From the NCBI RefSeq assembly GCF_001625015.1, contig NZ_LVWJ02000014.1:2170001-2234000 (forward strand): a DNA stretch of 64,000 nt, given 5' to 3'. Under the pieces are notes generated by a model that searched no databases, was not told the DNA's origin, and saw nothing but the letters and a program-made list of their open reading frames with translations. Position numbers and translations under genes: made by a program. The stretch is from Lewinella sp. 4G2. GTDB lineage: Bacteria; Bacteroidota; Bacteroidia; Chitinophagales; Saprospiraceae. Below, piece after piece: positions 1,367-62,357 of this stretch; positions within the stretch are counted from its first letter, which is position 1, and each line of letters starts with the position of its first letter.

Positions 1367-3676
1367 ATGCGTTGCTACCTATTTTTGGTCCTTCTGATTT
1401 CAGGCTTCGGGAGCTGTGCCAAACAAGTGATAGAAACAGCTCCGGCTAGTTCCATGGCAAGTAACGGTCAAGCTATTAGTATTCTTAGTGAAGCGCTGAC
1501 CTCCGCCGGGCTGGAGGTTGAAGTTGTTCGGTCGGATGAGCTGCGCGTTGCTGGGAAGGGCCTGGTTTTAGCCGTTGATGCCTCCTTGCCACCCAACGTA
1601 GCTTACCAGGTAAGTTCTCGGGGAGGCAATAGTATAGTTGTGAAAGCCCGCAATGAATCACTCCTGGCAGATGCCGCTTACGGATTACTCCGCGAATTAG
1701 GTTTCAAATATCTTCATCCTGCGCCGGGTTGGTCAATTGTTCCCAAGCTTAGTAGCCAAGACTTAAATGCTATCAACCTCACCGGTAGCAATGCCTTTCC
1801 CTACGCCAAAATCTTTAGTAGCCGTAGCATAAACGGCCTGCCAGCCTATGGTGAGTGGCTGCAACAGAATGGAGTTTACTCCATCACCAACGTGCAACTC
1901 GGACACTACGGAGTTACTTTCAACAAGCGCTACCGTGATCAGATTGAATCGAATCCTGAATGGAGGCCCATTGTCAATGGCCAGCGGATCAAGTACAACA
2001 AGAAAATGAAATTGGATTACACCCATCCGGGTGTCATTCAATTGATGAAATCGGATGCGGAAAAGAACCTGCGCAAGCTGATCGCAGCAGACGTACCACC
2101 GCCTTACTTTATCTCCGTAGAGCCTACCGATCGGGGGGGCTTCACCGAACGGCCTTATCGAAAAGGTAGCTCCGTCAGCGATCAGGTGTTCTTTGCAGCA
2201 AATGAAGTGGCCAAACATCTCAGTTCGGTTCATCCTGAGGCTAATGCTAGCCTGCTAGCCTATACCCACCACAGTGATTTACCTTCCTTCCCGCTGGAGC
2301 CGAACGTAGCGGTAACGGTCGTTACTGGCTGGTTCCAATACACCGGATCAACGGAAAATCTGCTACAACAATGGGGGCGGTCCAGCTTGGACTACTTGGG
2401 GCTACGTACCTATTCCGGAGTGCCGAAAGCGAAGGAAGTTCGGGTTCAGTTTCCAGCCCCAGCTACCCCAGTGGATCTACTTCAGACCGGGGCAAAATAT
2501 GGCTACCAACTTTATCGTGAACAATCGGTCTACTCCGGCGGGGCCATGGGTTACCGGCACTACCTGACGGCTAAACTATTGGCCGAGCCCAACGCCGATC
2601 TTAATGCAGTAAAGGAGGAGTATTTCCGCCTAGCTTTCGGGCCCGCCGCCGCCAAAATGCGTGAACTATACGATGTCGTATGGTACGGTTTTAACGGTAA
2701 ACAGGATTTGCAACTTAGCGTCCAGCTCATTAATGAGGCTGACGCACTTACCCGCAACGATCCCGCAATCCAAAAACGAATCGCCGACGTAATGGCCTAC
2801 GTGATCTATCTCGACCGCGCACTCGGCATTTCCGGCTCAGCCGATGTTGCCGGTATTGAAAGCTTGCTGGCTTACGCTAGTAGCATTGATGATCGGATGA
2901 TGGTCAATACCGAACACCTGGCGCGCCACTTCCGAAATATGCTGCGTAAAACGCATGCGATCAGTATTCCAAAGGGTCCAGGTCTCAGCCCTCAGCTTGA
3001 CGACCGTGCAGTGCGGAACCTATTTGCAACTCTTGATCCAGGCACAGCACCCGCGGCAGCGCCCAAAATGGCTACCGTAGGCAAAGCGAAATTTCCCGAT
3101 GAACGACTTGGTGAACCGATGCTGTCCCTCCGTGGTGGTAGTGAATTTGGCCTGCAGGATATTGATAGTGATGGCTTTATTAACACCCAAATCACTACGA
3201 CGGGATTAGGAAAATCAGACTTGTTCATCGCTTTGGACTTCTTTACGGATTCTGGCGAATTGGTACGCAGCGAGAAAATTTCCACCAATAACAAGCAGGC
3301 AAAAACACTGCGAATCCCCGTACCGCGAGGTGGGACGCTGCGCCTTAAATGCCACGCACGCGGAGGCCGGTATGCCCTGAAAATCACTGAGGAAGTACGA
3401 TTTTGGGAGGGGCAATCGCTCAGGCTATCAAAACCCTTTTCCGGGCTCGTTTACCTGGATTTGGATGCCAAAAGAAAAGTAATTAAACCCAGCCCCAATG
3501 CCGCCAACCTAACCGCAGTAGGTCGTACTACCGGCCGAGAGGCCTCAATCACCGGCGGCCGTAGCTTGGACCTTAACCAGGTGTTTGAAGGGGAAAGCAT
3601 TATCGCGATCAGTGGCTTAAATAGCAGTTTTGTATCCCCGGATAGGCTGCGGTTGTTCTTTGATTATGCTCCGTAG
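1367..3676 (+). CDS. secreted DUF4838-like lipoprotein, glycoside-hydrolase related
   Basis: 769-residue exported protein. The N-terminus is a lipoprotein signal (hydrophobic LFLVLLIS then lipobox GFGSC), so it is probably anchored to the outer membrane. Residues around 40-130 look like the small alpha/beta domain found ahead of GH67-type glucuronidases (NESLLADAAYGLLRELG, then HPAPGW), followed by a TIM-barrel-like region with the pattern YFISVEPTDRGG. This arrangement matches DUF4838 proteins, thought to be carbohydrate-active but without a proven activity. A beta-rich C-terminal part follows (about 570-769). It sits between a glycosyltransferase and the nonulosonic-acid operon, so trimming or modifying surface glycan is a fair guess. 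The dispersed 18-bp motif lies inside it at 3047. The family call comes from motif memory and is moderate. Confidence 0.6.
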   Translation: MRCYLFLVLLISGFGSCAKQVIETAPASSMASNGQAISILSEALTSAGLEVEVVRSDELRVAGKGLVLAVDASLPPNVAYQVSSRGGNSIVVKARNESLLADAAYGLLRELGFKYLHPAPGWSIVPKLSSQDLNAINLTGSNAFPYAKIFSSRSINGLPAYGEWLQQNGVYSITNVQLGHYGVTFNKRYRDQIESNPEWRPIVNGQRIKYNKKMKLDYTHPGVIQLMKSDAEKNLRKLIAADVPPPYFISVEPTDRGGFTERPYRKGSSVSDQVFFAANEVAKHLSSVHPEANASLLAYTHHSDLPSFPLEPNVAVTVVTGWFQYTGSTENLLQQWGRSSLDYLGLRTYSGVPKAKEVRVQFPAPATPVDLLQTGAKYGYQLYREQSVYSGGAMGYRHYLTAKLLAEPNADLNAVKEEYFRLAFGPAAAKMRELYDVVWYGFNGKQDLQLSVQLINEADALTRNDPAIQKRIADVMAYVIYLDRALGISGSADVAGIESLLAYASSIDDRMMVNTEHLARHFRNMLRKTHAISIPKGPGLSPQLDDRAVRNLFATLDPGTAPAAAPKMATVGKAKFPDERLGEPMLSLRGGSEFGLQDIDSDGFINTQITTTGLGKSDLFIALDFFTDSGELVRSEKISTNNKQAKTLRIPVPRGGTLRLKCHARGGRYALKITEEVRFWEGQSLRLSKPFSGLVYLDLDAKRKVIKPSPNAANLTAVGRTTGREASITGGRSLDLNQVFEGESIIAISGLNSSFVSPDRLRLFFDYAP
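3047..3064 (-). repeat. dispersed 18-bp motif, copy 1 (in CDS)
   Basis: GCACCCGCGGCAGCGCCC, the reverse complement of the window-wide motif with the A-to-G variant at one position. Read in the gene it encodes APAAAP in what looks like a linker between the barrel and the beta-rich C-terminal part. Confidence 0.75.
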
Positions 3677-10387: not shown

Positions 10388-11593
10388 ATGCCAACCCTCC
10401 TAATCATCTCCCAAACCCTCCCCCCCCGGCCAGCCGCCGGAACCCGCCGCTTGCGCTACCTCGCCGAGCAGGCCCTGAATAACTACGACCGCGTTTTCGC
10501 CATCCAACTAGACCGGGGCTACGCGGGCGAAACCATCCCCGGCGTGGTGACGACGGTACTACCCGCCCGAGATCTGCGCGCGGCCGTATCCCCCGATTCC
10601 CCGGCGGGCACCGTCGCAAAGTCCGGAGAGCCCAGGTGGAAAGCCCACCTCCGCCACCTCCGCCACTCCTTCCCCTTAGTTTGGTTTTTTGATGATGGTG
10701 GCCCGATCTACCGGCGCAAAGCCTTTGTCCGGGCTTGCCAACTCGTGGAAGAAGAAGGCATCACTCACCTTCTCTCCTCCTTCCGCCCCTACTCCGATCA
10801 CCTAGTCGCTAAACGCCTCAAAGCCCGCTACCCCCACCTCCACTGGGTCGCCGATTTCCGCGACCTCCCCGTCGATCCCATCCGCCAGGATGTTTGGTCG
10901 CCCAACCTCCAAACCTGGTGGGGCAAACGCGTCATCGCGGCGGCGGATGAAGTCTGGTGCGTCTCCCGCGGCCAGCGGGCACAGCTGCGGGGCTGGCACT
11001 CCAACATCAAGGTCCGCTACAATCCACTACTCACCTTGCCGCCAGCAAGCACTGCCCCGGTATCCGATCAATTCACCATTGTCCACACCGGCAGCGTGTA
11101 TCCCGGTTTGCAGTCCGCAGAACCCCTGGTTCAAGTATTGTCAAAATTATTGGCAGAGGGTGCCGTCCAGCCCCACCAACTCTGCATTAAGTACCGGGGA
11201 AAAGATGGCGGGGTATTCCAAAAAATGATGCGCGGTCTTCCGCAGGAGTGCCTGGATATCCAACCTTCCATTGCACCCGCGGCAGCGCAAAAAATGCAAC
11301 GCGAGGCACAAGTATTATTAATGATGAATTGGTCCGCCCCCAATTATTACGGCGTCCTTACCGCCAAGCTCTGGGATTACCTCGCCACCGGCCGCCCCAT
11401 CCTCGCCCTCGTCAATGGCCCGGGCGATGTCGAATTAAATGAAATAATCACGGGCGCTGCCGCAGGTGCCACCTTCGGGAACGATAACGGACCCACCTTA
11501 AAAACATTCGTATCCAATTTAATTAATACTTGGAAACAGCAGAATTCTGTACCGTGGACAGTTAATGTCGAGTTTCTTAAAAAGTATCGATGA
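10388..11593 (+). CDS. GT-B fold glycosyltransferase
   Basis: 401 residues resembling family-4-like glycosyltransferases that begin with ISQTLPPRPAAGTRR, a form common in surface-polysaccharide clusters of Bacteroidota. The donor domain has FTIVHTGSVYPG near residue 228 and a C-terminal KLWDYLATGRPILAL segment that matches the nucleotide-sugar end of the fold. No catalytic E-x7-E is obvious, so the family is less certain than for the gene at 89. It is GC-richer than the genes before it. Two copies of the dispersed 18-bp motif lie in frame, encoding IAPAAAQ and TGAAAGAT. Confidence 0.75.
   Translation: MPTLLIISQTLPPRPAAGTRRLRYLAEQALNNYDRVFAIQLDRGYAGETIPGVVTTVLPARDLRAAVSPDSPAGTVAKSGEPRWKAHLRHLRHSFPLVWFFDDGGPIYRRKAFVRACQLVEEEGITHLLSSFRPYSDHLVAKRLKARYPHLHWVADFRDLPVDPIRQDVWSPNLQTWWGKRVIAAADEVWCVSRGQRAQLRGWHSNIKVRYNPLLTLPPASTAPVSDQFTIVHTGSVYPGLQSAEPLVQVLSKLLAEGAVQPHQLCIKYRGKDGGVFQKMMRGLPQECLDIQPSIAPAAAQKMQREAQVLLMMNWSAPNYYGVLTAKLWDYLATGRPILALVNGPGDVELNEIITGAAAGATFGNDNGPTLKTFVSNLINTWKQQNSVPWTVNVEFLKKYR
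11273..11288 (-). repeat. dispersed 18-bp motif, copy 2 (in CDS)
   Basis: GCACCCGCGGCAGCGC, 16 bases matching the reverse complement of the motif; the last two bases differ. Encodes APAAA in the glycosyltransferase. Confidence 0.65.
11452..11469 (+). repeat. dispersed 18-bp motif, copy 3 (in CDS)
   Basis: Exact GGGCGCTGCCGCAGGTGC inside the glycosyltransferase gene, encoding GAAAGA. It lies only 180 bases from copy 2 in the opposite orientation. Confidence 0.85.
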
Positions 11594-12902: not shown

Positions 12903-14540
12903 ATGATCGAAACCCTCGTCCAATCCCCCCTTCTCCTCCTATTCACCGTCATCGCAATCGGTTACGGGATAGGGGACATTAAGATCCGGGGCTTCAAGCT
13001 CGGCGTCGCGGCGGTTCTTTTCGTCGGCCTGGCGTTTGGTGGGCTGAGCCCGGACCTCAAGGTGCCGCAGTTCATCATCTTCCTCGGGCTGGCGATTTTC
13101 GTGTATACGGTGGGCCTGAGTTCCGCGCCCGCCTTCTTCGCCAGCTTCCGCCGCCACGGTTTTCGCGACCTCTATTTCGCCACTTTCACGGTATTGTTAT
13201 CGGCAGTGTTAGCCTACGTCATTGGCCGCGGCCTGGGCTTTGATGCGGCGCTGACGAGCGGTCTTTATGCCGGCGCAAGTACCAACACCCCGGCGCTGGC
13301 CGGTTTGCTCGACGCGATCCAACAATCAGTGGGCGCTGACGCAGGTGCAGCGGAAGGGATGAGCGAACAAGCCGTCGTTGGTTATTCCCTCGCCTATCCC
13401 ATGGGAGTGCTGGGCGTGATGCTGGCGATCGTCCTCCTGCAGAAGGCAATGGGGGTGGACTACCAAAAAGAAGCCGACGAGCTCTCCAAAGAATACCCTC
13501 TCGGCAGCAAACTGACCAGCCGGACCTACGTGGTGGCACACCCGGAGATCACCGGCAAAACCCTCCGGGAATTCCGCCGCGGCCACGACGTAAGGGTCGC
13601 CTTCGGCCGCATCCAACACGACGGAAAGACCACCCTCACCAACTGGGATACCATCCCCCTAGCTGGCGACAAACTCGTCCTGGTCGGGACGGAAGAAGCC
13701 ATCACCGAAGCCGCCGCACACGTAGGCCCCGCCGCCGCGGATCAGCTTACCCACGACCGGACGGTATTCGACGTCCGCCGCATCTTCATCTCCAACGACG
13801 CAATTGCGGGCAAGACCATCGCGAGCCTCAACCTCCAGGAGAAGTTCAACCTCCTCATCACCCGCGTCCAACGTGGAGATATGGACCTCCTCGCTACTGG
13901 GAATACCACCCTTGAGCTTGGCGACCGCATCCTCATGGTGGCCCACCGGGATGACCTACCGGCCCTCTTCAAAGTGTTTGGTAATAGCTACGAGGCCCTG
14001 TCGCGCGTCAATCTCCTCAGCTTCGGGTTGGGTATCGCCCTGGGACTGATCCTGGGTATGATCAGCATCACGCTGCCGGGAGGCTATACCTTCAGTCTGG
14101 GCTTCGCCGGTGGCCCGTTGATCGTCGCTTTGGTCCTGGGACAACTCCGCCGTACCGGCCCTATCCTCTGGACCTTGCCCTACGGCGCCAACCTCACCCT
14201 CCGCCAGGTTGGCCTGATCTTCTTGTTGGCGGGCATAGGGATCCGCTCCGGCCAAACCTTTTTCCAGACGCTTCAAACGCAACTTGGATACCAGGTATTC
14301 CTGGCCGGCGGCGTCATCGCCATTTTAAGTACGGTGGCCACCCTGATCGTAGGCTACCGAATGCTGAAGATCCCCTTCAGCTTTCTCGGCGGCATGGTCG
14401 GTAGCCAACCCGCCGTTCTCGATTTCGCCCAGGAACAAGCTGGGAACAATTACCCCACCATCGGCTACACCCGCTTACTGCCGATGGTGCTGATCGGGAA
14501 GATTCTGGCGGTGCAGATTCTGTATAATATCCTGGCTTGA
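12903..14540 (+). CDS. AspT/YidE/YbjL-type putative transporter with RCK_C domains
   Basis: 545-residue inner-membrane protein. Hydrophobic helices fill about residues 5-185 and 365-545, each half matching the AspT/YidE/YbjL antiporter duplication domain (GLSSAPAFF and GLYAGASTNTPALAG in the first, GGMVGSQPAVLDFA in the second). Between them lie two TrkA-C-like regulatory domains (about 200-350; EITGKTLREF and DAIAGKTIASLN). Family members include an aspartate:alanine antiporter, but most are uncharacterised. Its stop overlaps the start of the next glycosyltransferase, so the two are probably cotranscribed. A variant of the dispersed motif lies at 13331. Confidence 0.85.
   Translation: MIETLVQSPLLLLFTVIAIGYGIGDIKIRGFKLGVAAVLFVGLAFGGLSPDLKVPQFIIFLGLAIFVYTVGLSSAPAFFASFRRHGFRDLYFATFTVLLSAVLAYVIGRGLGFDAALTSGLYAGASTNTPALAGLLDAIQQSVGADAGAAEGMSEQAVVGYSLAYPMGVLGVMLAIVLLQKAMGVDYQKEADELSKEYPLGSKLTSRTYVVAHPEITGKTLREFRRGHDVRVAFGRIQHDGKTTLTNWDTIPLAGDKLVLVGTEEAITEAAAHVGPAAADQLTHDRTVFDVRRIFISNDAIAGKTIASLNLQEKFNLLITRVQRGDMDLLATGNTTLELGDRILMVAHRDDLPALFKVFGNSYEALSRVNLLSFGLGIALGLILGMISITLPGGYTFSLGFAGGPLIVALVLGQLRRTGPILWTLPYGANLTLRQVGLIFLLAGIGIRSGQTFFQTLQTQLGYQVFLAGGVIAILSTVATLIVGYRMLKIPFSFLGGMVGSQPAVLDFAQEQAGNNYPTIGYTRLLPMVLIGKILAVQILYNILA
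13331..13348 (+). repeat. dispersed 18-bp motif, copy 4 (variant, in CDS)
   Basis: GGGCGCTGACGCAGGTGC, one base from consensus (C to A at the centre). Encodes GADAGA in a loop of the transporter. Confidence 0.6.
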
Positions 14541-15688: not shown

Positions 15689-15694
15689 TTTTTA

Positions 15695-15741
15695 AGTCTA
15701 TAGTCTGCAGTCTGTAGTAGCGGCACTGCAGACTATAGACT
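15695..15741. repeat. perfect 17-bp inverted repeat in a word array
   Basis: AGTCTATAGTCTGCAGT at 15695-15711 is matched exactly by its reverse complement at 15725-15741, with a 13-base loop. The words AGTCTGCAG and CTGCAGACT recur around it up to 15756. It lies just before the terminator. Confidence 0.8.
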
Positions 15742-15755
15742 AAAGACTGCAGACT

Positions 15756-15797
15756 AAAAAAGCCCCGGCAGCGAATTCACGCAGCCAGGGCTTTTTT
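15756..15797. terminator. bidirectional intrinsic terminator
   Basis: AAAAAAGCCC (15756 on) pairs with GGGCTTTTTT (to 15797), with partial pairing between. It has an A run on one side and a T run on the other, so it can end both the + strand glycosyltransferase and the - strand sigma gene. Confidence 0.85.
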
Positions 15798-16770: not shown

Positions 16771-16788
16771 GGGCGCTGCCGCAGGTGC
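16771..16788 (+). repeat. dispersed 18-bp motif, copy 5 (intergenic)
   Basis: Exact GGGCGCTGCCGCAGGTGC, 81 bases before the next gene's start codon. Confidence 0.85.
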
Positions 16789-16868: not shown

Positions 16869-18026
16869 ATGTCCAAGCAGAACCAACCCAACTTCGCCAC
16901 TAAATGCATCCACGGTGGCCTCAGCCCGGACCCAGCCACCGGCGCGGTGATGACCCCAATCTACCAAACCTCTACCTACGCGCAGTCGGCACCCGGCGTG
17001 AACCAGGGGTACGCGTATGCCCGGACCAAGAACCCCACCCGCAGTGCCCTCGAAAGTAACCTGGCTTCCCTAGAGAATGGTAAGCACGCCATCTGCTTCA
17101 GCAGCGGTCTCGCCGCCATGGATAACATCCTGAGGCTACTATCCCCCGGCGACGAAGTACTGGCCAGCGACGATCTCTATGGCGGCTCCTACCGTCTCCT
17201 GACTTCCGTTTTCGCAGGCTTCGGAATCAAATCCCGTTTTATCGACATGCGGGACGCAACTACCGTGGCCGCTGAGGTAAGTGATGCCACCAAAATGCTC
17301 TGGATCGAGACTCCCACCAACCCCATGCTCAACCTGGTGGACATTGCCGCGCTCACGGAAATCGCCAAAGAGAAAGGTCTCCTGTCCGTGATCGACAACA
17401 CCTTCGCCAGCCCCTACCTCCAACAACCCTTGGATATGGGGGCTGACCTCGTACTCCACTCCGCCACAAAGTACCTGGGCGGCCACTCCGACGTGGTGAT
17501 GGGCGCCGTCGTCACGCACAACGAAGAATTTGCCCAACGGCTTTACTATCTACAAAACGCAGTCGGCGCCATTCCCGGCCCACAGGATTGCTTCCTCGTT
17601 CTCCGCGGTATCAAAACACTACACCTCCGTGTCGAACGCGCCTGCCAGAACGCCCAGCGGATCGTGGAAGTCCTGCAGCGTGACGACCGCGTTGCCCATG
17701 TCTATTACCCCGGCCTTCCGGATCACCCCGGCCACGCCCTCGCCCGACGGCAAATGCGCGATTTCGGCGCCATGGTCTCCTTCGATCTGAAAGTGGATAC
17801 TATGGAGGCTGCCTCCGCCCTCATGCAGAAAACCCACTACTTCACCCTGGCCGAATCTTTGGGCGGCGTCGAATCACTGATTGGCCACCCCGCCACCATG
17901 ACCCACGCCAGCATCCCCCGCGAACAACGCCTTCAGGTGGGACTGACCGATTCCCTCATCCGACTCAGCGTGGGCATCGAAGACGCGGATGATTTAGTAG
18001 ACGACCTCACCAACGCCCTTCGCTAA
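16869..18026 (+). CDS. trans-sulfuration PLP enzyme (cystathionine gamma-synthase/lyase family)
   Basis: Cys/Met-metabolism PLP enzyme, 385 residues, cytosolic. It has TKCIHGG at the start, [13 protein letters not shown] (phosphate-binding Tyr and Arg of the partner subunit), [25 protein letters not shown], the cofactor aspartate in [15 protein letters not shown], and the PLP-lysine segment [12 protein letters not shown] (Lys near 200). Near the C-terminus [20 protein letters not shown] and [10 protein letters not shown] are the usual substrate-carboxylate region. Synthase, gamma-lyase and O-acetylhomoserine enzymes share these motifs. The length and the form of the C-terminal half fit cystathionine gamma-synthase or lyase better than the longer sulfhydrylases. 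It is a single gene. Confidence 0.9.
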
Positions 18027-21490: not shown

Positions 21491-21937
21491 CTATTTAATC
21501 GCCAGTTTACCGTTCAAATAACAATCTTCAATCTCTGCGTTTTGGGCGGCGTAAAACTTCAGCGCTTCGGTATTCGTATCGGCGATCTGCCACTTCAGAA
21601 GGCGGCATTCGTGGCGCTTACCCACTTCCAATAGTGCATCCCAGAGTTGCTGTCCGATGCCCCGGCGGCGGTAGGCCGGGTCCAGTACGAAGTCCTCCAG
21701 GTAGATCATGCGGCCCTTCCAGGTGCTGTAAGTGAGGTAGTACAGGGCCATGCCTACTACTTTTTCCTCCTCCGTAGCTACGAGGGCCTTGAAGTAGCCC
21801 GCCGCAAAATCCCTTTCGTAATCGGCGATCGTAGCCGTGAAATCTGGCAGGTGGCCAACGTATTCCGCCAGTTCCGCCACCAGCGCGTGGATGGCGGGCA
21901 AATCTTTCAATTCAGCGTCTCTGGTTGTGATGGGCAT
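21491..21937 (-). CDS. GNAT family N-acetyltransferase
   Basis: 148-residue acetyl-CoA-dependent transferase. It starts MPITTRDAELKDLPAIHAL; GRMIYLEDFVLDPAYRRRGIGQQL carries the acetyl-CoA pyrophosphate loop (RRRGIG), and the motif-B region ends TNTEALKFYAAQNAE. ATG 21937 was chosen over longer in-frame starts because a TAGCTTTG promoter lies just upstream of it and the conserved domain begins there. The family resembles spermidine/thialysine acetyltransferases, and the divergent neighbour is a polyamine gene, but the substrate is not proven. Confidence 0.85.
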   Translation of the reverse strand: MPITTRDAELKDLPAIHALVAELAEYVGHLPDFTATIADYERDFAAGYFKALVATEEEKVVGMALYYLTYSTWKGRMIYLEDFVLDPAYRRRGIGQQLWDALLEVGKRHECRLLKWQIADTNTEALKFYAAQNAEIEDCYLNGKLAIK

Positions 21938-21952
21938 GGTACAAATTTTTAG

Positions 21953-21960
21953 CAAAGCTA
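21953..21960 (-). promoter_or_regulatory. promoter -7 element for the GNAT gene
   Basis: Minus strand TAGCTTTG (21960 to 21953), 15 bases before the start codon; fits TAnnTTTG. Confidence 0.5.
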
Positions 21961-21982
21961 ATAAGCGCACCACCGTAAATTT

Positions 21983-22000
21983 GGGCGCTGCCGCAGGTGC
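21983..22000 (+). repeat. dispersed 18-bp motif, copy 6 (intergenic, between divergent genes)
   Basis: Exact GGGCGCTGCCGCAGGTGC, just upstream of the GNAT promoter on one side and 53 bases before nspC on the other. Confidence 0.85.
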
Positions 22001-22053
22001 CTTGCGAATGGGGAATAAACAAGGGTACGCTGCCGGCAAAAGACTATATCTCA

Positions 22054-24992: not shown

Positions 24993-26171
24993 CTATAAAC
25001 AGCGGCACAGTAGCTTAATCGCATCCACCCGCAGGATGGGGTATTCCTCGTACCCCCCGGCCCAAAATACCCGAACGTAATCGATCGCTTCCCGCTGCAG
25101 CGTACTCAACTCGTTGCGCTTTAGTGGGTAGTCGACGTCGTAATTGAGGGTTTGCTGGAGGTGGTTGACGATGCCGACACTCTCCCGTTCTCCTGAAAGG
25201 ACGAGGCTGCGGCCATCCAAAAAGTGGATACTAAGTGAAGGTCCCTGGGGCAGTGTCCCGTAGGCATTTCGCGCTACGGCATTGCTGAATCCAAACTGCA
25301 AATGCAGAAATGCAGATTGGTTCTGATCCCGACTCACGTACGCGGAGGCCGTCAGGTATTCTTTTCCTTCCAGAAAGGGACGGAGGCTCTCTTCGGTGAA
25401 GCTGAAGAAGGGTAATAACGGCGTCTGGGGTTGGGCTCCATTGCTTGCCTTGGGGGCGGGGACTTGCCGGCAGGGGAGGGGCTCGCGGATTCCGTCCCTT
25501 GCTTTGGCTGGTCCGTAGCCCGTGAACTCCGCTTCTTTGGGGTAGAGTAGGGATAGAGTGCGGTCCTGCCCGGTGGGTCGATCTACGGACTCCAGCCGTT
25601 TGGCGGTGCGGCGGCGGTCTTCATTGTAAGCTTTCACGAACTTGCCGGATTCTAACAATCCTTCAATTACGCCGACTTGCTGCTGGGCGTCGGCCTCGTC
25701 GTCCTGGGCCTTGATCTCCAAATCCTTGGCCAAATTGAAGCGGCGGCTGAGGGCGGAGAGCTCCGTCAGGTTACCGGCCCGGCGGGCGGCGTCCATTTCA
25801 TTTTCCAGTTGTTCTCTGTTGGTCGTTGCGGCGCTGGCGCGGGTGCTGGCTAAGGATAATGCAGTGCGCGCCAGGTTGAGGCGGCGTTCGGCGATGTGGC
25901 GGAGGTCCGCCTCCGTCGGGGTGAGGGCATCACCGAGGGGTTCGATGTTGACGGAGAGGACGGTATAGGCTGCATCGTCTCCAGCTGCCCCCGTCACCGG
26001 TTGCCCGTCGTTAAAGTAGCGGGCGGACCCATCCGGTTGGACGATGATCTTTTCGCCCGTGGCCGTCGTCCGTAATGCTTGCCCATTTCCTGGCACCTGC
26101 GCCAGCGCCCAAATCCCCGCGCAAAGCAGGATGGGAAGACAGGATCGACTGGTTGAAGGGCGGAAAAGCAT
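24993..26171 (-). CDS. secreted protein of unknown function with coiled-coil segment
   Basis: 392 residues; signal peptide-like N-terminus (LPILLCAGIWALA). Early on it has a repeat-like phrase, GEKIIVQPDGSARYFND, similar to segments in Bacteroidota surface proteins. Residues about 80-165 are Ala/Arg/Glu-rich and probably helical or coiled (RHIAERRLNLARTALSLAS). The C-terminal half has FFSFTEESLRPFLEGKEYLT and a final VDAIKLLCRCL. I do not recognise a family. Downstream it converges on the OmpH-like gene. Two variant copies of the dispersed motif lie in its sequence. Confidence 0.6.
   Translation of the reverse strand: MLFRPSTSRSCLPILLCAGIWALAQVPGNGQALRTTATGEKIIVQPDGSARYFNDGQPVTGAAGDDAAYTVLSVNIEPLGDALTPTEADLRHIAERRLNLARTALSLASTRASAATTNREQLENEMDAARRAGNLTELSALSRRFNLAKDLEIKAQDDEADAQQQVGVIEGLLESGKFVKAYNEDRRRTAKRLESVDRPTGQDRTLSLLYPKEAEFTGYGPAKARDGIREPLPCRQVPAPKASNGAQPQTPLLPFFSFTEESLRPFLEGKEYLTASAYVSRDQNQSAFLHLQFGFSNAVARNAYGTLPQGPSLSIHFLDGRSLVLSGERESVGIVNHLQQTLNYDVDYPLKRNELSTLQREAIDYVRVFWAGGYEEYPILRVDAIKLLCRCL
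25831..25846 (+). repeat. weak match to the dispersed motif (in CDS)
   Basis: GCGCTGGCGCGGGTGC, one base off the G-variant core. It lies in an Ala-rich coding segment, so chance is possible. Confidence 0.3.
26093..26110 (-). repeat. dispersed 18-bp motif, copy 7 (variant, in CDS)
   Basis: GCACCTGCGCCAGCGCCC, one base from the reverse-complement consensus. Falls in the signal-peptide region of the unknown secreted protein, reading ALAQVP. Confidence 0.55.
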
Positions 26172-26199
26172 GGGGCGAATATACGGCCACGCGCGTGCC

Positions 26200-26207
26200 T
26201 ATATTTG
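26200..26207 (+). promoter_or_regulatory. promoter -7 element for cdaA
   Basis: TATATTTG fits TAnnTTTG; it ends five bases before the GTG at 26213, so transcription would begin at or next to the start codon. Confidence 0.55.
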
Positions 26208-26212
26208 CGGCC

Positions 26213-31184: not shown

Positions 31185-31976
31185 ATCACTGATTGTTACT
31201 TAACCCTGCTGGGCACCGCCACTTCCCAGGGCGTACCCGTCATCGGGTGCGACTGCGCCGTTTGCCGGTCGGCTGACCCCCGCGACACCCGGTTGCGGAC
31301 CAGCGCTTTGCTCTCCGAAGGGGACCAACATTTGGCCATCGATGCCGGCCCGGACTTCCGCACTCAAATGCTACGGGCGAGCGTACAAGAGTTGGCGGGC
31401 CTTATCCTCACCCACGAGCACAATGATCATACGGCCGGCCTGGATGACGTCCGCCCCTTCTGTTTCAAACAAAGGATCGACATGCCCGTCTACTGTCTGC
31501 CGCGGGTAGCTAAGGATATAAGAAGCCGCTTTGCCTACGCCTTCACGGACTACCCCGGCGTTCCCCGCCTCGACGTGCGGGAGGTGAATTTTGGCGACTT
31601 TATCCCCTTCGGGTCCGGGGCGGTGGAAATCCTGGAGGTTACCCACGGCAAGCTCCCCATCATTGGCCTGCGCTGGCACGACCTGGTGTACCTGACGGAC
31701 GTAAAGGAGCTTACGGCGCTGACGCAGGTGCGGTGTAAAGGGGCAAAAACGGTCGTCATCTCCAGCCTGAACCGGCGCGGAACACACAGCCACCTCTCCC
31801 TGGCGGAGTCGCTAACCTATATAAAGGACATCGGCGCCGACCATAACGTACTCATCCACTTCAGCCACCGGATGGGCCGGGTAGCGGAGGTGAACCCGGA
31901 ATTACCCACGGGCGTAGAATGCGGCTACGACGGAATGAGATTGACGGTTGGAAAGAGTGCTGCAGGCGCACAATAA
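31185..31976 (+). CDS. MBL-fold metallo-hydrolase, PhnP-like
   Basis: Metallo-beta-lactamase fold phosphodiesterase-like enzyme. Active-site motif ILTHEHNDHTAGLDDVRPF (His-x-His-x-Asp-His), later HGKLPIIGLR and HFSHRMG with the remaining metal ligands. The N-terminal LLGTATSQGVPVIGC and the structural-zinc motif CDCAVCRSADPRDTRLR, conserved in PhnP-like proteins, are encoded at 31206-31290, before the first ATG of the frame (31293). The frame upstream is open back to a TAA at 31164-31166 but has no ATG, GTG or TTG, so the start is non-standard; I place it at ATC 31185, where an initial M would fit the family. CTG 31206 is another option. The substrate is unknown. Confidence 0.75.
   Translation: MTDCYLTLLGTATSQGVPVIGCDCAVCRSADPRDTRLRTSALLSEGDQHLAIDAGPDFRTQMLRASVQELAGLILTHEHNDHTAGLDDVRPFCFKQRIDMPVYCLPRVAKDIRSRFAYAFTDYPGVPRLDVREVNFGDFIPFGSGAVEILEVTHGKLPIIGLRWHDLVYLTDVKELTALTQVRCKGAKTVVISSLNRRGTHSHLSLAESLTYIKDIGADHNVLIHFSHRMGRVAEVNPELPTGVECGYDGMRLTVGKSAAGAQ
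31715..31731 (+). repeat. dispersed 18-bp motif, copy 8 (variant, in CDS)
   Basis: GGCGCTGACGCAGGTGC, 17 bases with the C-to-A centre variant, in the metallo-hydrolase. Unlike most coding copies it is read in another frame (ALTQVR), so chance is possible. Confidence 0.45.
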
Positions 31977-39756: not shown

Positions 39757-39774
39757 GGGCGCTGCCGCGGGTGC
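39757..39774 (+). repeat. dispersed 18-bp motif, copy 9 (intergenic)
   Basis: GGGCGCTGCCGCGGGTGC (G variant), 23 bases after the SusE/F stop; faces copy 10. Confidence 0.85.
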
Positions 39775-39830: not shown

Positions 39831-39848
39831 GCACCTGCGGCAGCGCCC
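39831..39848 (-). repeat. dispersed 18-bp motif, copy 10 (intergenic)
   Basis: GCACCTGCGGCAGCGCCC, inverted relative to copy 9 and 56 bases from it; 29 bases before the GH53 start. Copies 9 and 10 can pair as an 18-bp stem with one G-T type mismatch. Confidence 0.85.
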
Positions 39849-46553: not shown

Positions 46554-46571
46554 GCACCTGCGGCAGCGCCC
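46554..46571 (-). repeat. dispersed 18-bp motif, copy 11 (intergenic, divergent genes)
   Basis: GCACCTGCGGCAGCGCCC, exact reverse complement of the consensus, 61 bases before the channel start and about 100 bases from the lipoprotein start. Confidence 0.85.
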
Positions 46572-48607: not shown

Positions 48608-48639
48608 TTTGCGATATAAAACAAAGTGTTTTATATTTG
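48608..48639 (+). promoter_or_regulatory. promoter overlapped by a perfect palindrome (candidate operator)
   Basis: TTTG (48608-48611), 20 bases, then TATATTTG (48632-48639) fits a Bacteroidota promoter. Within it, ATATAAAACA (48614-48623) and its exact reverse complement TGTTTTATAT (48627-48636) form 10-bp arms around AAG, covering the spacer and half the -7 element. A dimeric repressor bound here would block transcription. Confidence 0.6.
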
Positions 48640-48697
48640 TAATCGAAGCCGCGGAATAGTTTTGTCCGGCGGCAGGTTGCAAAAAAATCTCAAGAAC

Positions 48698-49495
48698 ATG
48701 TCTTCTTCAAACACTGCTCCGGCGCGCACCGCCGGTAATGACCGCGTACTCACTATTGACTGGTCACTCCTTTTCCGGCGCATCGCTTCCCGTGGTCGCC
48801 AGGCTTTCACCTCCGCTCGCTATCAGGCGCAGCAAACCGAATACGTTCCGTCCGCCTGGATGCAACGGCTAGGCATCAGCTGGTTCCGTTTAGGTCTAAT
48901 CGCCATTGCCCTTTTCGTCTTCACGCAGAAGCAAGTTGACTTCAAAGTCAGCATGGGTGAGGAAGGATTGGCCTTTGGTGTCAGCCAACGCACCGCTTCT
49001 CCTACCGAGGGCGCTGCCGCAGGTGCCGGGGAAGGACGGACGGCCACGATGAGCCTGATCCCCTCCTTCACTGGGAACAGTAAAGAAACCGCGGTACCCG
49101 CCTGGAGCGTGGACGAATTAGACGAAGCCGCCGTACGGGCCTACATCAGCCGATTCGAAAAGGTGGCCCAGGGGGAAGAGCGCAAGTACAGCATCCCCGC
49201 TGCAGCGAACATGGCCCTGGCCATCATTCACAGCAATGCGGGTAAGAGTACGGCCGCTACGAAAAAGAACAACCACTTCTTCCCCGTAACCGCTAACACC
49301 TACTACGAGAATGCCTGGATGAACTGGCGTTCCCACAGCAAGTTGATCAGCGAGAAGTACCCGGAACTGGCCGCAGAATCCGTCAACTACCAGCAATGGA
49401 CGGCCGCCCTCGCCCGTACGAACTACAGCAACAATCCTAAGCTAGCTGACCGCATCATGGACGTCGTCGAACGCTACGGCCTGGAACGTCTGTAA
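48698..49495 (+). CDS. membrane-anchored glucosaminidase-like protein, possibly inactive
   Basis: 265 residues from ATG 48698; a start at 48626 would lie inside the promoter. One membrane helix (about 73-92; LGLIAIALFVFTQ) follows a cytosolic basic segment. The C-terminal domain (about 145-265) follows the lysozyme-like glucosaminidase layout: RKYSIPAAANMALAIIHSNAGKS, then NNHFFPV, NAWMNWRSHSKLIS and YSNNPKLADRIMDVVERYGL. In active members the first segment reads like ALAQGILESGWGKS, with catalytic Glu; here it is IIHSNAGKS with no Glu. It may be a binding protein. The dispersed motif forms its linker (EGAAAGAGEG). Confidence 0.65.
   Translation: MSSSNTAPARTAGNDRVLTIDWSLLFRRIASRGRQAFTSARYQAQQTEYVPSAWMQRLGISWFRLGLIAIALFVFTQKQVDFKVSMGEEGLAFGVSQRTASPTEGAAAGAGEGRTATMSLIPSFTGNSKETAVPAWSVDELDEAAVRAYISRFEKVAQGEERKYSIPAAANMALAIIHSNAGKSTAATKKNNHFFPVTANTYYENAWMNWRSHSKLISEKYPELAAESVNYQQWTAALARTNYSNNPKLADRIMDVVERYGLERL
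49009..49026 (+). repeat. dispersed 18-bp motif, copy 12 (in CDS)
   Basis: Exact GGGCGCTGCCGCAGGTGC, encoding GAAAGA in the linker between the membrane helix and the glucosaminidase-like domain. Confidence 0.85.
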
Positions 49496-53645: not shown

Positions 53646-53662
53646 GGCGCTGCCGCAGGTGC
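53646..53662 (+). repeat. dispersed 18-bp motif, copy 13 (intergenic)
   Basis: GGCGCTGCCGCAGGTGC, 17 of 18 bases, 33 bases after the 79-residue gene and directly before a hairpin. Confidence 0.8.
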
Positions 53663-53839: not shown

Positions 53840-55006
53840 ATGATTTCCCAGCAGACAATTGACTCCCTGGCGCAGGCAAACGGAGAACATCTCGTATCCC
53901 TAGTCGTCCCCACCGCCCAGGACAACGACAGTGAAAAGAACCGCATCCGGTTAAAAAATGCCCTCCAGGAAGCTAAAAATGAGCTCACTAAAAGAGGAAT
54001 GAACGACCGGCAGGCCATGGAATACCTGACCAAGGGAACCAACCTAAGCGAAGATTTTGATTTTACTCAGATCGACAAAGCCGTTGCATTATTTATTGGC
54101 GACGATATTTTTGAATTCGTAAGCTTGGATGAAGTTGCTAATGAGGCGGTGACGGTCGGACCTGAATTCGAATTGAACTCGCTGCTCAACACGAGCTCTA
54201 ACTCCGATCATTCTTTCTTCCTATTAGCGCTTAGTCGTGGTGGGACTAAGTTATTTATCGCCAAAGACGGCACCTTACAGCTTATCGATGCCACGGGTAT
54301 TATTCCAGAAGATATGGAAGCTGCCTTGTTGCTTGATGATCCGGATCGCCAACTCAATCAAGCTGGCCGCGCAGGTCGCGAAGGCACCTACTTTGGCCAT
54401 GGTGCCGGTAAGGACGAAGAAAGCGGCCACCTTAAAGCCTACCTGGATATCGTGGACCAGGGCGTCAACACCCTGCTCAAAAACGAAAAGCGACCCCTGC
54501 TCCTCGCCGGCGTGACCGAGATTGTTGCTATCTACCGCCAGGCCAATCAGTACAATCACCTCATTGAGGATCGCTACATCAGTGGTAACGTCAACGACGT
54601 ACCTACGCAGGAGCTCTTCGAACAAGCAACGGTGGTGCTCGGTGATTACTTCAACGAACAGCAGGAAAGAGATGTAGAATTATTCGGCCTCAATTTTGCC
54701 AAGGGCGAAGCCGGTGCTTCACTAGATAAAATCGTCCCTGCTGCCATCAACGGTCGAGTAGAAGTCCTCTGGGTGAAAAAGGGCAGCCGAGCCTTCGGTA
54801 GCTACGACGCAGCTACTAATGGGGTCAACTACCTCGAGGAGGGCGATGCTAATGCTAAGGATCTGTTCCAAACCGCACTCCGCCATACTCGCAAAAACGG
54901 CGGCCGCGTCTACTACGTGGAAGCCGATAAGATGCCCAAAGAGAACACAGACGTCTGTGCCATTTACCGTTACGGTACCAGCGCAGTTACTACGAACTTT
55001 AATTAA
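53840..55006 (+). CDS. baeRF-type (bacterial archaeo-eukaryotic release-factor-like) protein
   Basis: 388 residues, cytosolic. The layout matches the bacterial aRF1-like families: an N-terminal domain (LVSLVVPTAQDNDSEKNRIRLKNAL, AVALFIGDDIFEFVSLD), a middle domain of the eRF1 type (FFLLALSRGGTKLFIAKDG, then HGAGKDEESGHLKAYLDIVDQGVNTLL with KRPLLLAGV) and a C-terminal L7Ae-like part (VEVLWVKKGSRAFG to DVCAIYRYG). Such proteins have been proposed to act on ribosomes, including hibernation or rescue, but this family is not characterised. The family assignment is from motif pattern. Confidence 0.7.
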   Translation: MISQQTIDSLAQANGEHLVSLVVPTAQDNDSEKNRIRLKNALQEAKNELTKRGMNDRQAMEYLTKGTNLSEDFDFTQIDKAVALFIGDDIFEFVSLDEVANEAVTVGPEFELNSLLNTSSNSDHSFFLLALSRGGTKLFIAKDGTLQLIDATGIIPEDMEAALLLDDPDRQLNQAGRAGREGTYFGHGAGKDEESGHLKAYLDIVDQGVNTLLKNEKRPLLLAGVTEIVAIYRQANQYNHLIEDRYISGNVNDVPTQELFEQATVVLGDYFNEQQERDVELFGLNFAKGEAGASLDKIVPAAINGRVEVLWVKKGSRAFGSYDAATNGVNYLEEGDANAKDLFQTALRHTRKNGGRVYYVEADKMPKENTDVCAIYRYGTSAVTTNFN

Positions 55007-55056: not shown

Positions 55057-55073
55057 GCACCTGCGGCAGCGCC
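55057..55073 (-). repeat. dispersed 18-bp motif, copy 14 (intergenic)
   Basis: GCACCTGCGGCAGCGCC, 17 of 18 bases, 50 bases after the baeRF stop. Confidence 0.8.
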
Positions 55074-55280: not shown

Positions 55281-55356
55281 TGGAGCCGCCCATCGGACTC
55301 GAACCGACGACCTATTCATTACGAATGAATTGCTCTACCAGCTGAGCTAGGGCGGC
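55281..55356 (-). tRNA. tRNA-Thr (anticodon CGU)
   Basis: Read on the minus strand: acceptor GCCGCCC/GGGCGGC, D-arm GCTC-AGCTGGTA-GAGC, anticodon stem ATTCA/TGAAT around loop TTCGTAA (anticodon CGT), variable loop AGGTC, T-arm GTCGG-TTCGAGT-CCGAT, discriminator T and an encoded CCA at 55281-55283. All stems pair, so the gene is intact. It decodes ACG. Confidence 0.95.
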
Positions 55357-60310: not shown

Positions 60311-60347
60311 GAAGGTGCGTCACTTGTGACGTGCCTTTCTTTTTTTT
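60311..60347 (+). terminator. terminator of porV
   Basis: AAGGTGCGTCAC pairs with GTGACGTGCCTT (two mismatches) around TT, then TCTTTTTTTT. Confidence 0.7.
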
Positions 60348-60361
60348 GGGAAGATAGATGT

Positions 60362-60379
60362 GGGCGCTGCCGCGGGTGC
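60362..60379 (+). repeat. dispersed 18-bp motif, copy 15 (intergenic)
   Basis: GGGCGCTGCCGCGGGTGC (G variant), 14 bases after the porV terminator and 116 bases before the next start. Confidence 0.85.
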
Positions 60380-60494
60380 GGAGAAAAGTGGACGGGCGAA
60401 CATCCACAGCGATAAATACTCGCGTGGCGTCCGTAAGCCTACACCACCAATCCTCCGCCTCGCCGTACCTTGGCGCACCACCAGCTTTTGCTAC

Positions 60495-62357
60495 ATGCCT
60501 GCTTCGACTTTGCGTCTTGTTATCCTCGTCATCTTCACCAGTTTCGCATACTGCGGGCTCAACGGCCAGTGCGAAAACCTTGGGGAAAACATCTTCACCG
60601 ACGGCGATTTTGGTTCGGGGACGGACAACGTAGTTCCGGTCGATCCCGGCATTGCTCCCGGCTTTACCTACCAGCCATTTCCTCCACCAAACGATGGTTT
60701 CTACACCATCACCAACAATACGGGTGGCCCGCGGTGGAACAGCATCTTTGGTACCTGGTCTCGCTTCCGCGACAACAGCAACGACCCCAACGGGTACATG
60801 ATGATCGTCAACGCGAACTTCACGCCGGGTAAGTTTTACGAGCAGCGCGTAGATGGCCTCTGCGAAAACACCGAATATCAATTTGCCGTCGACGTTCGAA
60901 ACGTTCTGGCACCGGGGCCTCCAGGACTTTTCCCCGACGTGGCCTTCCTTATCGATGGGGTGGTGCGGGATTCTACGGACAACGTTCCGCAGGATGGAGC
61001 CTGGCATACTTACGACCTAACTTTCAGCACAATGCCTGGGCAAACTTCAGTCTTGCTCACACTCGCTAATAATAATCCGGGTGGTTTGGGGAACGACTTA
61101 GCGATTGACAATATTTCCTTCCGCGCCTGCGGGCCACAGGCACAAATCGAAGGCGCCCGCACTACGGTGGATGCGTGTTTGGGTGGCGACCCACCAATTC
61201 TTATTTCTGAGATCATTGGTGACCAGTACCCCACGCCCGCCTTTCAGTGGCAACGCAGTCTGGACGGGGGGCTTACCTGGGAAGACATCCCCGGAGAGAA
61301 TTCGGACCGTTACCAAGCGCCCATGTTACCCGTGGGGCGGCACCCGTTTCGCTACCTGGTAGCGGCGGCACCTTCCAACATCAATAACAATAAATGCAGG
61401 GTTACTTCCACGATCGTGGAGGTGAACGTTCAACCTTTGGAGTTTACCATCATCGATACGATCTGCGCTGGTTTATCCTTTCCCGTTGGCAACTCTGCGT
61501 ACACTGAGAGTGGCGTTTATCGTGACGATCTGATCTCCTCGCTGGGGTGCGACAGCACCGTCATCACCCAATTGACGGTCGTGCCCGATCCGGGGTTGGT
61601 TCCCAATTTTCAGGTAAATGATACGCGTTGTTCTGACGTTACCGATGGTTCCGTTTTGCTGCTTGACGTTGCCGGCGCCGCCCCGCCATTCACTTTAACG
61701 TTCGATGATAAATTCGCTGCCGGACGCATCGATAGTCTTGCGCCCGGTCCGTATTCCTATTCCATCACTGATCGGTTTGGATGCGCTGCCGCAGGTGCGG
61801 TGGAAGTAGGATCACCCGCCCCATTCGTGGTGGACCTGGGCCCCGACCTGGAGGTCGAGCTCGGAGATGAAGTGGCCGTCTTTCCCAACTCAAACTATGG
61901 CATATCCTCCCTGACCTACAGCCCTCCCGTTCCAGGGTGCGAAATGGGTTGTGACGATCTCCTTTTTACGCCCACCTCCACCCTGAACCTGCGTTTACTC
62001 GCCCTAAGCGATACGGGGTGTGTGGCCGTAGATAGTCTGGAAATCGTGGTGGTGAAGAACCGGGAAGTGTACTTTCCCAACAGCTTTAGCCCGAACGGCG
62101 ACGGGGTGAACGATGACTTCGCTCCCTTCACCAGGGCTTCACGAATAGTGGCCGTGTCCTACCTGCGGGTGTTTGACCGCTGGGGCAGCCTCGTCTTCGA
62201 AGCCGAAAACATCCCCGCCAACGAATTGAGCGCGGGTTGGGATGGTAAGATCGGTGAAGAACTGGCGCCTCCGGGAAGCTACGTATACGCCTCGGAGGTC
62301 CTGTACGTGGACGGTGAAAGCCGCCGCTTCAGCGGGAGCCTGATGCTACTTCGCTAA
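60495..62357 (+). CDS. T9SS type B (gliding-motility C-terminal domain) secreted protein
   Basis: 620 residues from ATG 60495. Signal peptide (LRLVILVIFTSFAYCGLNGQ). N-terminal carbohydrate-binding-like domain (about 22-215) with NLGENIFTDGDFGSG, PNGYMMIVNA and LAIDNISFRACG, the pattern of jelly-roll domains in cell-surface proteins. Then an Ig-like/PKD-type part with FQWQRSLDGGLTWEDI and two SprB-like segments. The C-terminus, NREVYFPNSFSPNGDGVNDDF to GSYVYASEVLYVDGE, is the CHU_C type B sorting domain, so export is by T9SS, whose PorV is encoded just upstream. The dispersed motif encodes CAAAGA near residue 432. Confidence 0.85.
   Translation: MPASTLRLVILVIFTSFAYCGLNGQCENLGENIFTDGDFGSGTDNVVPVDPGIAPGFTYQPFPPPNDGFYTITNNTGGPRWNSIFGTWSRFRDNSNDPNGYMMIVNANFTPGKFYEQRVDGLCENTEYQFAVDVRNVLAPGPPGLFPDVAFLIDGVVRDSTDNVPQDGAWHTYDLTFSTMPGQTSVLLTLANNNPGGLGNDLAIDNISFRACGPQAQIEGARTTVDACLGGDPPILISEIIGDQYPTPAFQWQRSLDGGLTWEDIPGENSDRYQAPMLPVGRHPFRYLVAAAPSNINNNKCRVTSTIVEVNVQPLEFTIIDTICAGLSFPVGNSAYTESGVYRDDLISSLGCDSTVITQLTVVPDPGLVPNFQVNDTRCSDVTDGSVLLLDVAGAAPPFTLTFDDKFAAGRIDSLAPGPYSYSITDRFGCAAAGAVEVGSPAPFVVDLGPDLEVELGDEVAVFPNSNYGISSLTYSPPVPGCEMGCDDLLFTPTSTLNLRLLALSDTGCVAVDSLEIVVVKNREVYFPNSFSPNGDGVNDDFAPFTRASRIVAVSYLRVFDRWGSLVFEAENIPANELSAGWDGKIGEELAPPGSYVYASEVLYVDGESRRFSGSLMLLR
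61783..61798 (+). repeat. dispersed 18-bp motif, copy 16 (in CDS)
   Basis: GCGCTGCCGCAGGTGC, 16-base core, encoding AAAGA between two beta-domains of the secreted protein. Confidence 0.75.

What the first reader, a model, noticed from the sequence alone, without database searches (positions are those of the whole stretch)
3047..61798. Dispersed 18-bp motif GGGCGCTGCCGCAGGTGC, about 16 copies in 64 kb
Copies on the sequence: 3047, 11273, 11452, 13331, 16771, 21983, 26093, 31715, 39757, 39831, 46554, 49009, 53646, 55057, 60362, 61783, on both strands, exact or one to two changes. An 18-mer should not recur by chance in a window this size. Eight copies lie in the small non-coding fraction. Most coding copies are read as GAAAGA or APAAAP in linkers. 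The core CTGCSGCAG is a 9-bp odd-centred palindrome, and the flanks are asymmetric, giving an orientation. Variation is confined to the centre base and one A/G position. It could be a binding site for a nucleoid or repair protein, an uptake-type signal, or a very small mobile repeat that is tolerated in proteins as an Ala/Gly linker. I know of no described element with this sequence in this group.
Basis: partly seen in the sequence, partly recalled or inferred. Interest (0 to 1): 0.82.

Follow-up and report, generated by a model that had tools for sequence, protein, structure and literature searches.

The report
Uptake-like DNA tag in Neolewinella
A short oriented DNA word is written about a thousand times across the chromosome of this bacterium, evenly spaced on each strand separately and spelled in species dialects, much like the tags by which a few other bacteria recognise their own DNA before taking it up, although the pilus motor those bacteria use was not found here.

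Summary
It lies in a ~45-bp asymmetric pattern (ATTTGG + core + RRGnAAnGGG + purine-rich tail) with flat flanks beyond. The organism is a Neolewinella (Saprospirales). Congeners carry dialects (up to 1072 GCGCGG copies; a third form in IMCC34191). The GCGCTG form was found in 0 of 39 genomes outside the genus.

New here: copies on one strand keep 2-3 kb apart (7 same-strand pairs under 2 kb, 78 expected; same-strand gap CV 0.52), while opposite-strand copies do not avoid each other. A sister species repeats this; 0 of 985 and 0 of 819 decoy words do; E. coli Chi in 300 kb does not.

The genus keeps ComEC, and no full-length type IV pilus/secretion ATPase was found in it. The barrel-DUF5689 genes that Riemerella needs for transformation were found in 1 of 21 genus genomes, motif-poor SD302.

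Best explanation: a DNA-uptake (transformation) sequence read strand by strand, served by an unidentified receptor. No uptake assay exists to my knowledge, and the gene correlation rests on one branch.

The parts
3047..3062 (-). motif core, in ORF 1367-3676 (DUF4838)
11273..11288 (-). motif core, in ORF 10388-11593 (no Pfam match)
11454..11469 (+). motif core, same ORF, opposite strand to 11273
13333..13348 (+). motif core in ORF 12903-14540 (Asp-Al_Ex permease); the site aligned across 18 species
16773..16788 (+). motif core, intergenic, upstream of ORF 16869-18026 (Cys_Met_Meta_PP)
21985..22000 (+). motif core at the start of ORF 21997-23169, overlapping ORF 21491-22054 (-); coding status unsure
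26093..26108 (-). motif core; ORFs 24993-26171 (-) and 26075-27007 (+) overlap here
31716..31731 (+). motif core, in ORF 31293-31976 (Lactamase_B_2 fold)
39759..39774 (+). motif core, intergenic between SusE-like and GH53 ORFs; left arm of an inverted pair
39831..39846 (-). motif core, right arm of the inverted pair; the pair and its tails fold into one long hairpin followed by a T-rich stretch
46554..46569 (-). motif core, intergenic between divergent ORFs
49011..49026 (+). motif core, in ORF 48626-49495 (Glucosaminidase)
53647..53662 (+). motif core, intergenic
55057..55072 (-). motif core, intergenic, 50 bp past ORF 53840-55006 (baeRF family)
60364..60379 (+). motif core at the very start of ORF 60360-62357; the true start may lie downstream
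61783..61798 (+). motif core, in ORF 60360-62357 (CHU_C type IX secretion tail)

Best explanation
The motif is most likely the DNA-uptake (transformation) sequence of Neolewinella: an oriented ~45-bp self-tag that lets the cell prefer its own kind's DNA, and that has multiplied because tagged alleles are imported and recombined more often (uptake-driven molecular drive). Shown here: abundance; both strands, no link to GC skew; excess in non-coding DNA; in-place substitution at one compared site; species dialects; and spacing that is regular on each strand and independent between strands. Inferred: that the tag acts in DNA import or in the use of imported DNA; that it is read on single strands, each stretch of a few kb needing one tag; and that it works through an unidentified outer-membrane receptor, without type IV pili, which took the place of the Bacteroidota barrel-DUF5689 apparatus when the tag arose.
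For: Abundance: 957 exact copies, reversed control 0; no strand/GC-skew link (+24/-26 where skew is positive, +24/-20 where negative, 20 stretches). Anatomy: 5' T-tract, core, RRGnAAnGGG and purine-rich tail in G000, a similar layout in seven congeners, five of them from only 12-26 copies. Dialects: GCGCTG 957 and GCGCGG 65 in this genome, GCGCGG 1072 and GCGCTG 140 in lacunae, GCGCGG 783 in persica and 746 in antarctica; GGCGGCGGNGCGCAGGTR 252 in IMCC34191 against 0-57 elsewhere. In place; the 38 of 130 aligned cells that keep the motif are 0.94 identical in it and 0.68 in the flanks. Spacing: same-strand pairs under 2 kb 7 against 78.0 expected in 1.23 Mb, opposite 85 against 77.8; lacunae 3 against 31.5, opposite 31 against 31.4; antarctica 0 against 10.2; decoys as low: 0 of 985 and 0 of 819. 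A toy model gives this pattern only when redundancy is counted per strand. Machinery: ComEC in 21 of 21 genus genomes, DprA and HHH_3 in 20 of 21. DUF5689, its barrel and the nuclease found beside them in outgroups: 1 of 21 each, always G011/SD302, which has 0, 4 and 0 copies of the three forms and is sister to the other 17 species sampled (99/99).
Against: No uptake or transformation assay is known to me for any Neolewinella. Losing the barrel-DUF5689 genes could equally mean loss of competence. The correlation with that loss is one event on one branch, and 9 of 39 genomes outside the genus also lack DUF5689 without having this motif. No receptor was found. The core (16 bp) is longer than the ca. 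9-12 nt of known uptake sequences. Strand-specific exclusion is not a property that I saw reported for DUS or USS in the passages read, so it may point to another process. Several congeners have few copies (xylanilytica 16 GCGCGG and 41 of the third form; JB7 26 and 21). In one search, 49 of 130 cells lack the motif with some gap in the BLAST alignment. The per-strand toy model gives a gap CV of 0.66, the genomes 0.50-0.52. Three of the seven exceptions to the exclusion lie in this window.
Confidence: 0.6

Rival explanations
1. Chi-like recombination signal: an oriented word read on one strand by a RecBCD/AddAB-type helicase-nuclease during break repair, kept at useful intervals in each orientation by selection.
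For: Oriented, read per strand, density (one per ~5 kb) like E. coli Chi; independence of the two orientations follows naturally.
Against: E. coli Chi in 300 kb shows the reverse: 49 same-strand pairs under 2 kb against 24.5 expected, CV 1.25 (one species, and the stretch holds Rhs repeats). Known Chi words are 5-8 nt and often biased to one replication strand (recalled); here 16 nt plus tail and no skew link. Does not predict the coincidence with the missing uptake genes.
Confidence: 0.15
2. Binding site of a nucleoid or chromosome-organising protein placed at regular intervals.
For: Even distribution over the chromosome; even spacing of USS was once read this way (Karlin, as cited in PMC1939737, passages).
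Against: A duplex-binding protein would not by itself make same-strand copies exclude each other while ignoring the opposite strand; no link to GC skew; dialect turnover of ~1000 sites would need coordinated change without a drive.
Confidence: 0.13
3. Spacing is a by-product: close direct copies are lost through deletion between direct repeats, inverted ones are not; the motif itself may have any function.
For: Direct-repeat deletion is strand-specific and symmetric, as observed.
Against: Depletion is still about 85% at 1-2 kb (6 against 38.6 in G000, 2 against 15.7 in lacunae) and nearly gone at 3-4 kb; slippage between ~16-bp repeats should fall off much sooner (recalled, not tested); regular gaps (CV 0.5) are not explained.
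Confidence: 0.07
4. Very small mobile repeat tolerated in proteins.
For: Many near-identical copies.
Against: No insertion at the motif in the 18-species alignment, flat flanks, same-strand exclusion.
Confidence: 0.02

Closest known systems
DNA uptake sequence (DUS) of Neisseriaceae, with dialects (PMC3630211; abstract and passages seen)
   Same: Many copies, coding and non-coding, species dialects that follow phylogeny.
   Different: DUS is a shorter word read by the type IV minor pilin ComP. Here the core is 16 nt with a tail, the phylum is different, and no full-length pilus ATPase was found.
Uptake signal sequence (USS) of Pasteurellaceae (PMC7811141, PMC1939737, PMC12616744; abstract or summary starts and passages seen)
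   Different: 9-nt core with AT tracts; type IV pilus/secretin uptake. The passages seen report no exclusion between same-strand copies with indifference to the other strand.
Transformation genes of Riemerella (PMC8459023; abstract part, passages and one section seen)
   Same: Same phylum; needs ComEC, DprA and an HHH-domain protein, families that Neolewinella keeps.
   Different: Its DUF5689 surface protein and CarboxypepD_reg barrel relatives were not found in motif-bearing Neolewinella. R. columbina is reported to prefer its own DNA (PMC7965970, passages seen); only frequent k-mers were listed there, with their function left open.
Chi recombination hotspot of E. coli
   Same: Short oriented word of similar density.
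   Different: 8 nt, and clustered on the same strand in the 300-kb control.

Membership tests
DNA uptake sequence (functional class) | strong genome-wide over-representation on both strands | tested here: met
   476 + 481 against control 0 + 0
DNA uptake sequence (functional class) | dispersed in genes and between genes with an excess between genes | tested here: met
   0.51 against 0.13 per kb; C11 0.43 against 0.15 per kb; own gene caller
DNA uptake sequence (functional class) | species dialects that follow phylogeny | tested here: met
   three core forms with different dominance by species; phylogeny from one protein only
DNA uptake sequence (functional class) | inner-membrane and cytosolic transformation genes present | tested here: met
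   ComEC 21 of 21, DprA 20 of 21, HHH_3 20 of 21 genus genomes; ComF and RecA not searched
DNA uptake sequence (functional class) | tagged DNA is taken up or transformed preferentially | not testable with these tools
   needs an uptake assay
DUS/USS of Neisseriaceae/Pasteurellaceae | type IV pilus machinery with a minor-pilin receptor | tested here: not met
   no full-length PF00437 ATPase in G000 or 20 congeners; only partial matches of about 24-85 positions, some of which just pass the family's cut-off. Not filed as a member of either family
Riemerella-type uptake apparatus | CarboxypepD_reg barrel + DUF5689 genes | tested here: not met
   0 of 20 genus genomes other than SD302
Chi | same-strand spacing as seen for E. 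coli Chi | tested here: not met
   7 against 78.0 here, 49 against 24.5 in E. coli; spacing is not a formal definition of Chi
Chi | recognised by RecBCD/AddAB | not testable with these tools
   needs biochemistry
small mobile repeat (REP/MITE) | insertion footprint and shared sequence beyond the core | tested here: not met
   flat flanks; no insertion at the one site aligned across 18 species

The most novel reading that the evidence does not exclude
A further independent origin of a DNA-uptake sequence, the first in Bacteroidota and the first without type IV pili, in which the tag is read on single-stranded DNA (each strand keeps its own evenly spaced set). It would have arisen together with the replacement of the phylum's known outer-membrane uptake genes by a new, sequence-specific receptor.
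Probability: 0.4. Interest if true: 0.94.

Novelty: new variant of a known kind. Interest (0 to 1): 0.85.

Why it matters
[quoted passage not shown] A case in another phylum, without the pilus, would show that such tags do not need pilus receptors, would give a handle on the outer-membrane DNA receptor of Bacteroidota, and would offer a dialect series to test how such tags spread. The strand-specific spacing rule is a quantitative signature that can be checked at once in Haemophilus and Neisseria genomes, and bears on the open question whether uptake bias alone (molecular drive) or a benefit to the cell places the tags.

Tried and rejected
Strand polarity: the listing for antarctica looked almost one-stranded over 0.5 Mb. 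Stretches that I fetched hold both strands, including copies absent from that listing, so the listing is cut short and I drew nothing from it.

Replication-linked orientation (KOPS-like or lagging-strand site): no link to GC skew. Single-strand hairpin: three copies folded as DNA on both strands fold no better than shuffles. Terminators: the 13 inverted pairs under 100 bp in 1.23 Mb all fold into hairpins, but most of the 313 copies are not so paired.

Directional import from the tag to one side: in the toy model this removes convergent pairs; observed convergent/divergent pairs under 2 kb are 49/36, 38.9 expected each, so rejected as the cause of the spacing. The toy model is simple and its parameters are mine.

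Receptor hunt: gene lists of 71 kb around comEC (4 of these proteins scanned against Pfam) and of the region of an HHH_3 gene on contig C11 (no Pfam scan) gave no convincing candidate. A gene-content comparison of whole genomes could not be run. A first decoy test had only 2 decoys, one or both probably parts of the motif, and was replaced. Plasmids: no match for one 251-bp query.

Dropped before counts: motif hits too near a stretch end for the flank shown, pairs within one genome and HSPs above 97% identity. (first spacing test) used positions of the C11 and C12 copies as listed; C12 alone was not significant for alternation (p 0.11; C11 0.001).
Full report
1. Observation. A scan with up to 3 mismatches finds 19 copies of the 18-mer, 0.11 expected from 100 shuffles. 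All 19 fit the core GCGCTGNCGCRGGTGC exactly, 12 on the + and 7 on the - strand. The genome (G000, 5,213,657 bases in 21 contigs) holds 476 + 481 exact copies; the pattern read backwards gives 0 + 0. In the listing, contig C11 has 74 and C12 has 20, near the genome mean per kb (lengths 398,648 and 100,276 bp).

2. Anatomy. In 464 kb of G000 (20 stretches plus the window) 90 exact copies with flanks give a base profile: 5' ATTTGG (-6 to -1), the core (0 to 15; mostly C at the centre base, A or G at one place), then RRG at +17 to +19, AA at +21/+22, GGG at +24 to +26, and a purine-rich tail to about +38. Beyond this the profile is flat. Congeners show a similar layout with changed core letters: lacunae (117 copies), antarctica (39), aurantiaca (26), agarilytica (21), IMCC34191 (15), marina (13), IMCC34183 (12). 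Word counts made without the motif (11 genomes) put it or its dialect among the top words in G000, lacunae, aurantiaca and IMCC34191 and show parts of it in antarctica and marina; in agarilytica an abundant other repeat fills the list, and xylanilytica, SD302, maritima and IMCC34183 did not show it at the top.

3. Where. By a simple gene caller of my own, coding DNA carries 0.13 and non-coding 0.51 copies per kb (52 and 38 of 90); on C11 0.15 and 0.43 (53 and 23 of 76). In genes orientation is balanced (28 same, 24 opposite) and one of three frames is nearly unused in each orientation. There is no link to GC skew over 20 stretches of the main contig (+24/-26 where skew is positive, +24/-20 where negative).

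4. Who has it. The Asp-Al_Ex permease of the window found named relatives; equal coordinates link 17 unnamed handles to Neolewinella and Lewinella records. The GCGCTG form is in 17 of 20 congeners, from 2 to 140 copies, and in 0 of 39 genomes outside the genus; reversed controls are 0-5. The GCGCGG form is in 20 of 21 genus genomes: lacunae 1072, persica 783, antarctica 746, aurantiaca 645, agarilytica 543, this genome 65, JB7 26, xylanilytica 16, SD302 4, IMCC34191 0; reversed controls 0-5. A third form, GGCGGCGGNGCGCAGGTR, is 252 in IMCC34191 and 0-57 in the others, control 0 in all 21. In a tree of the permease (21 rows) SD302 is sister to the 17 other Neolewinella rows, support 99/99. So the tag rose inside the genus and split into dialects.

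5. How copies arise. At the window's copy 13333, 18 species align. Six (own, agarilytica, antarctica, persica, W8, lacunae) have GCGCKGNCGCRGGTGC, two (aurantiaca, ANT-68) a one-base variant, and ten have other codons; the alignment has no gap at the motif (own has 6 extra bases just upstream). In a BLAST comparison of fetched stretches, 130 copy-partner cells from 15 copies, most of them this same gene and counted in both directions, 38 keep the motif (0.94 identity, flanks 0.68), 43 lack it without a gap and 49 lack it with a gap of 1-7 bases in that alignment. This favours substitution in place, but rests mainly on one gene.

6. Spacing rule. In 1.23 Mb of G000 (C11, 300 kb of C19, 71 kb of C14, the window and 20 further 20-kb stretches; 313 copies with up to one mismatch) same-strand pairs closer than 2 kb number 7 against 78.0 expected; opposite-strand pairs 85 against 77.8, convergent 49 and divergent 36. 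Exclusion fades at 2-3 kb (12 against 37.8) and is nearly gone at 3-4 kb (32 against 37.0). Same-strand gaps on C11 + C19 average 8.0 kb with CV 0.52 (n 173). A 384-kb contig of lacunae gives 3 against 31.5, opposite 31 against 31.4, CV 0.50 (n 108). Antarctica (142 kb, 39 copies) has 0 against 10.2. Shuffling strand labels in G000 gives a mean of 43 and a minimum of 26 in 2000 runs. None of 985 and none of 819 decoy 6-7-mers of similar count is as low. Opposite pairs under 100 bp are in excess (13 against 4.0). Three of the seven exceptions lie in this window (3047/4503, 11454/13333, 60364/61783). E. coli Chi in 300 kb of K-12 shows the reverse: 49 same-strand pairs against 24.5 expected, CV 1.25.

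7. What the rule means. In a toy birth-death model, redundancy between any two copies removes both kinds of pairs, redundancy by one-sided import removes convergent pairs, and redundancy counted per strand gives the observed pattern (same/expected 0.06, opposite 0.94-0.97; gap CV 0.66, against 0.50-0.52 observed). This shows consistency, not proof. My reading is that the tag is tested on single strands of a few kb.

8. Machinery. No full-length type II/IV secretion ATPase (PF00437) was found in G000 or 20 congeners; they have only partial matches, a few just over the cut-off; full-length matches occur in three genomes outside the genus. ComEC is in 21 of 21 genus genomes, DprA and HHH_3 in 20 of 21, the miss being G010, 55% complete. 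In Riemerella anatipestifer transformation needs ComEC, DprA, ComF, RecA, an HHH protein, a DUF1343 protein, a CarboxypepD_reg barrel and a DUF5689 protein (PMC8459023, abstract part, passages and section 19). DUF5689 occurs in 30 of 39 genomes outside the genus but in 1 of 21 inside, SD302. The barrel that lies beside it in six outgroup loci and in SD302 is also found in SD302 alone within the genus (1 of 21). A secreted-looking Exo_endo_phos_3 nuclease lies next to the barrel in five outgroup loci, with a PIF1-like helicase in three; within the genus its relatives too are in SD302 alone (1 of 21), unlinked there. Thus the motif-bearing clade kept inner components and lacks the known outer ones; SD302, with almost no motif, has both. 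That is one branch, and nine genomes outside the genus lack DUF5689 without this motif, so it suggests and does not prove.

9. Literature. [quoted passage not shown] PMC3630211 (abstract and passages) gives eight DUS dialects. PMC1939737 and PMC7811141 (passages) give even spacing, no orientation bias, many copies in genes, and close inverted pairs as terminators. PMC7965970 (passages) reports self-DNA preference in R. columbina and lists frequent k-mers whose role is left open. Searches for an uptake sequence or transformation in Bacteroidetes/Bacteroidota, Saprospiraceae and Neolewinella/Lewinella (open-access PMC only, capped lists) showed no title reporting this motif.

10. Verdict. The element is real and under a tight, strand-specific spacing rule. 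A DNA-uptake sequence is the best-supported reading (0.6); a Chi-like or a nucleoid site remains possible. It works like DUS/USS but is not filed as a member of either, because the type IV pilus ATPase was sought and not found.

Noticed in passing
window about 15694-15760; L007 about 2829-2905 and 11036-11090; also L005, L160, L202, L213: Arrays of a 7-nt unit (AGTCTRT)n followed by its complement, in 24 of 58 G000 sources listed in the scan, looking like hairpins between genes. Lacunae has arrays of an 8-nt unit around TAGTTCAG; aurantiaca and IMCC34183 have units of their own. Species-specific micro-repeats, unexplained.
   Followed up: partly
L196-L201 (SD302 and five Saprospirales genomes outside the genus): Conserved barrel + DUF5689 locus, in five outgroup loci with an adjacent secreted-looking Exo_endo_phos_3 nuclease and in three with a PIF1-like helicase. 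These may belong to the Bacteroidota DNA-uptake apparatus.
   Followed up: partly
L014 (G000:C14:1469001-1489000): A 20-kb stretch without a motif copy; it holds a DDE transposase, large proteins without Pfam matches and two proteins with type IX sorting-tail matches, one weak. Would fit acquired DNA lacking the tag; one case only.
   Followed up: partly
L037-L040 (agarilytica, G002:C27): Words of one repeat (around TCACAAGAAGGATTAAGAC) occur about 58 times in 80 kb, perhaps a CRISPR array; not examined.
   Followed up: no
L269, L276, L286 (IMG/VR contigs): The 3 of 80 listed viral loci with two motif copies, each pair in opposite orientation; may be Neolewinella prophages or host DNA.
   Followed up: no
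window 55281-55356 (-): tRNA-Thr (CGT), the only hit in the window by Rfam gathering thresholds and by ARAGORN.
   Followed up: no
G000:C14:789421-791739: ComEC here matches the DUF4131 and Competence domains and no metallo-beta-lactamase domain, so another nuclease may be needed to degrade one strand.
   Followed up: no
G041 (outside the genus): This genome has full-length PF00437 matches and no DUF5689, a possible separate swap of uptake apparatus in the order; G035 and G046 have both.
   Followed up: no
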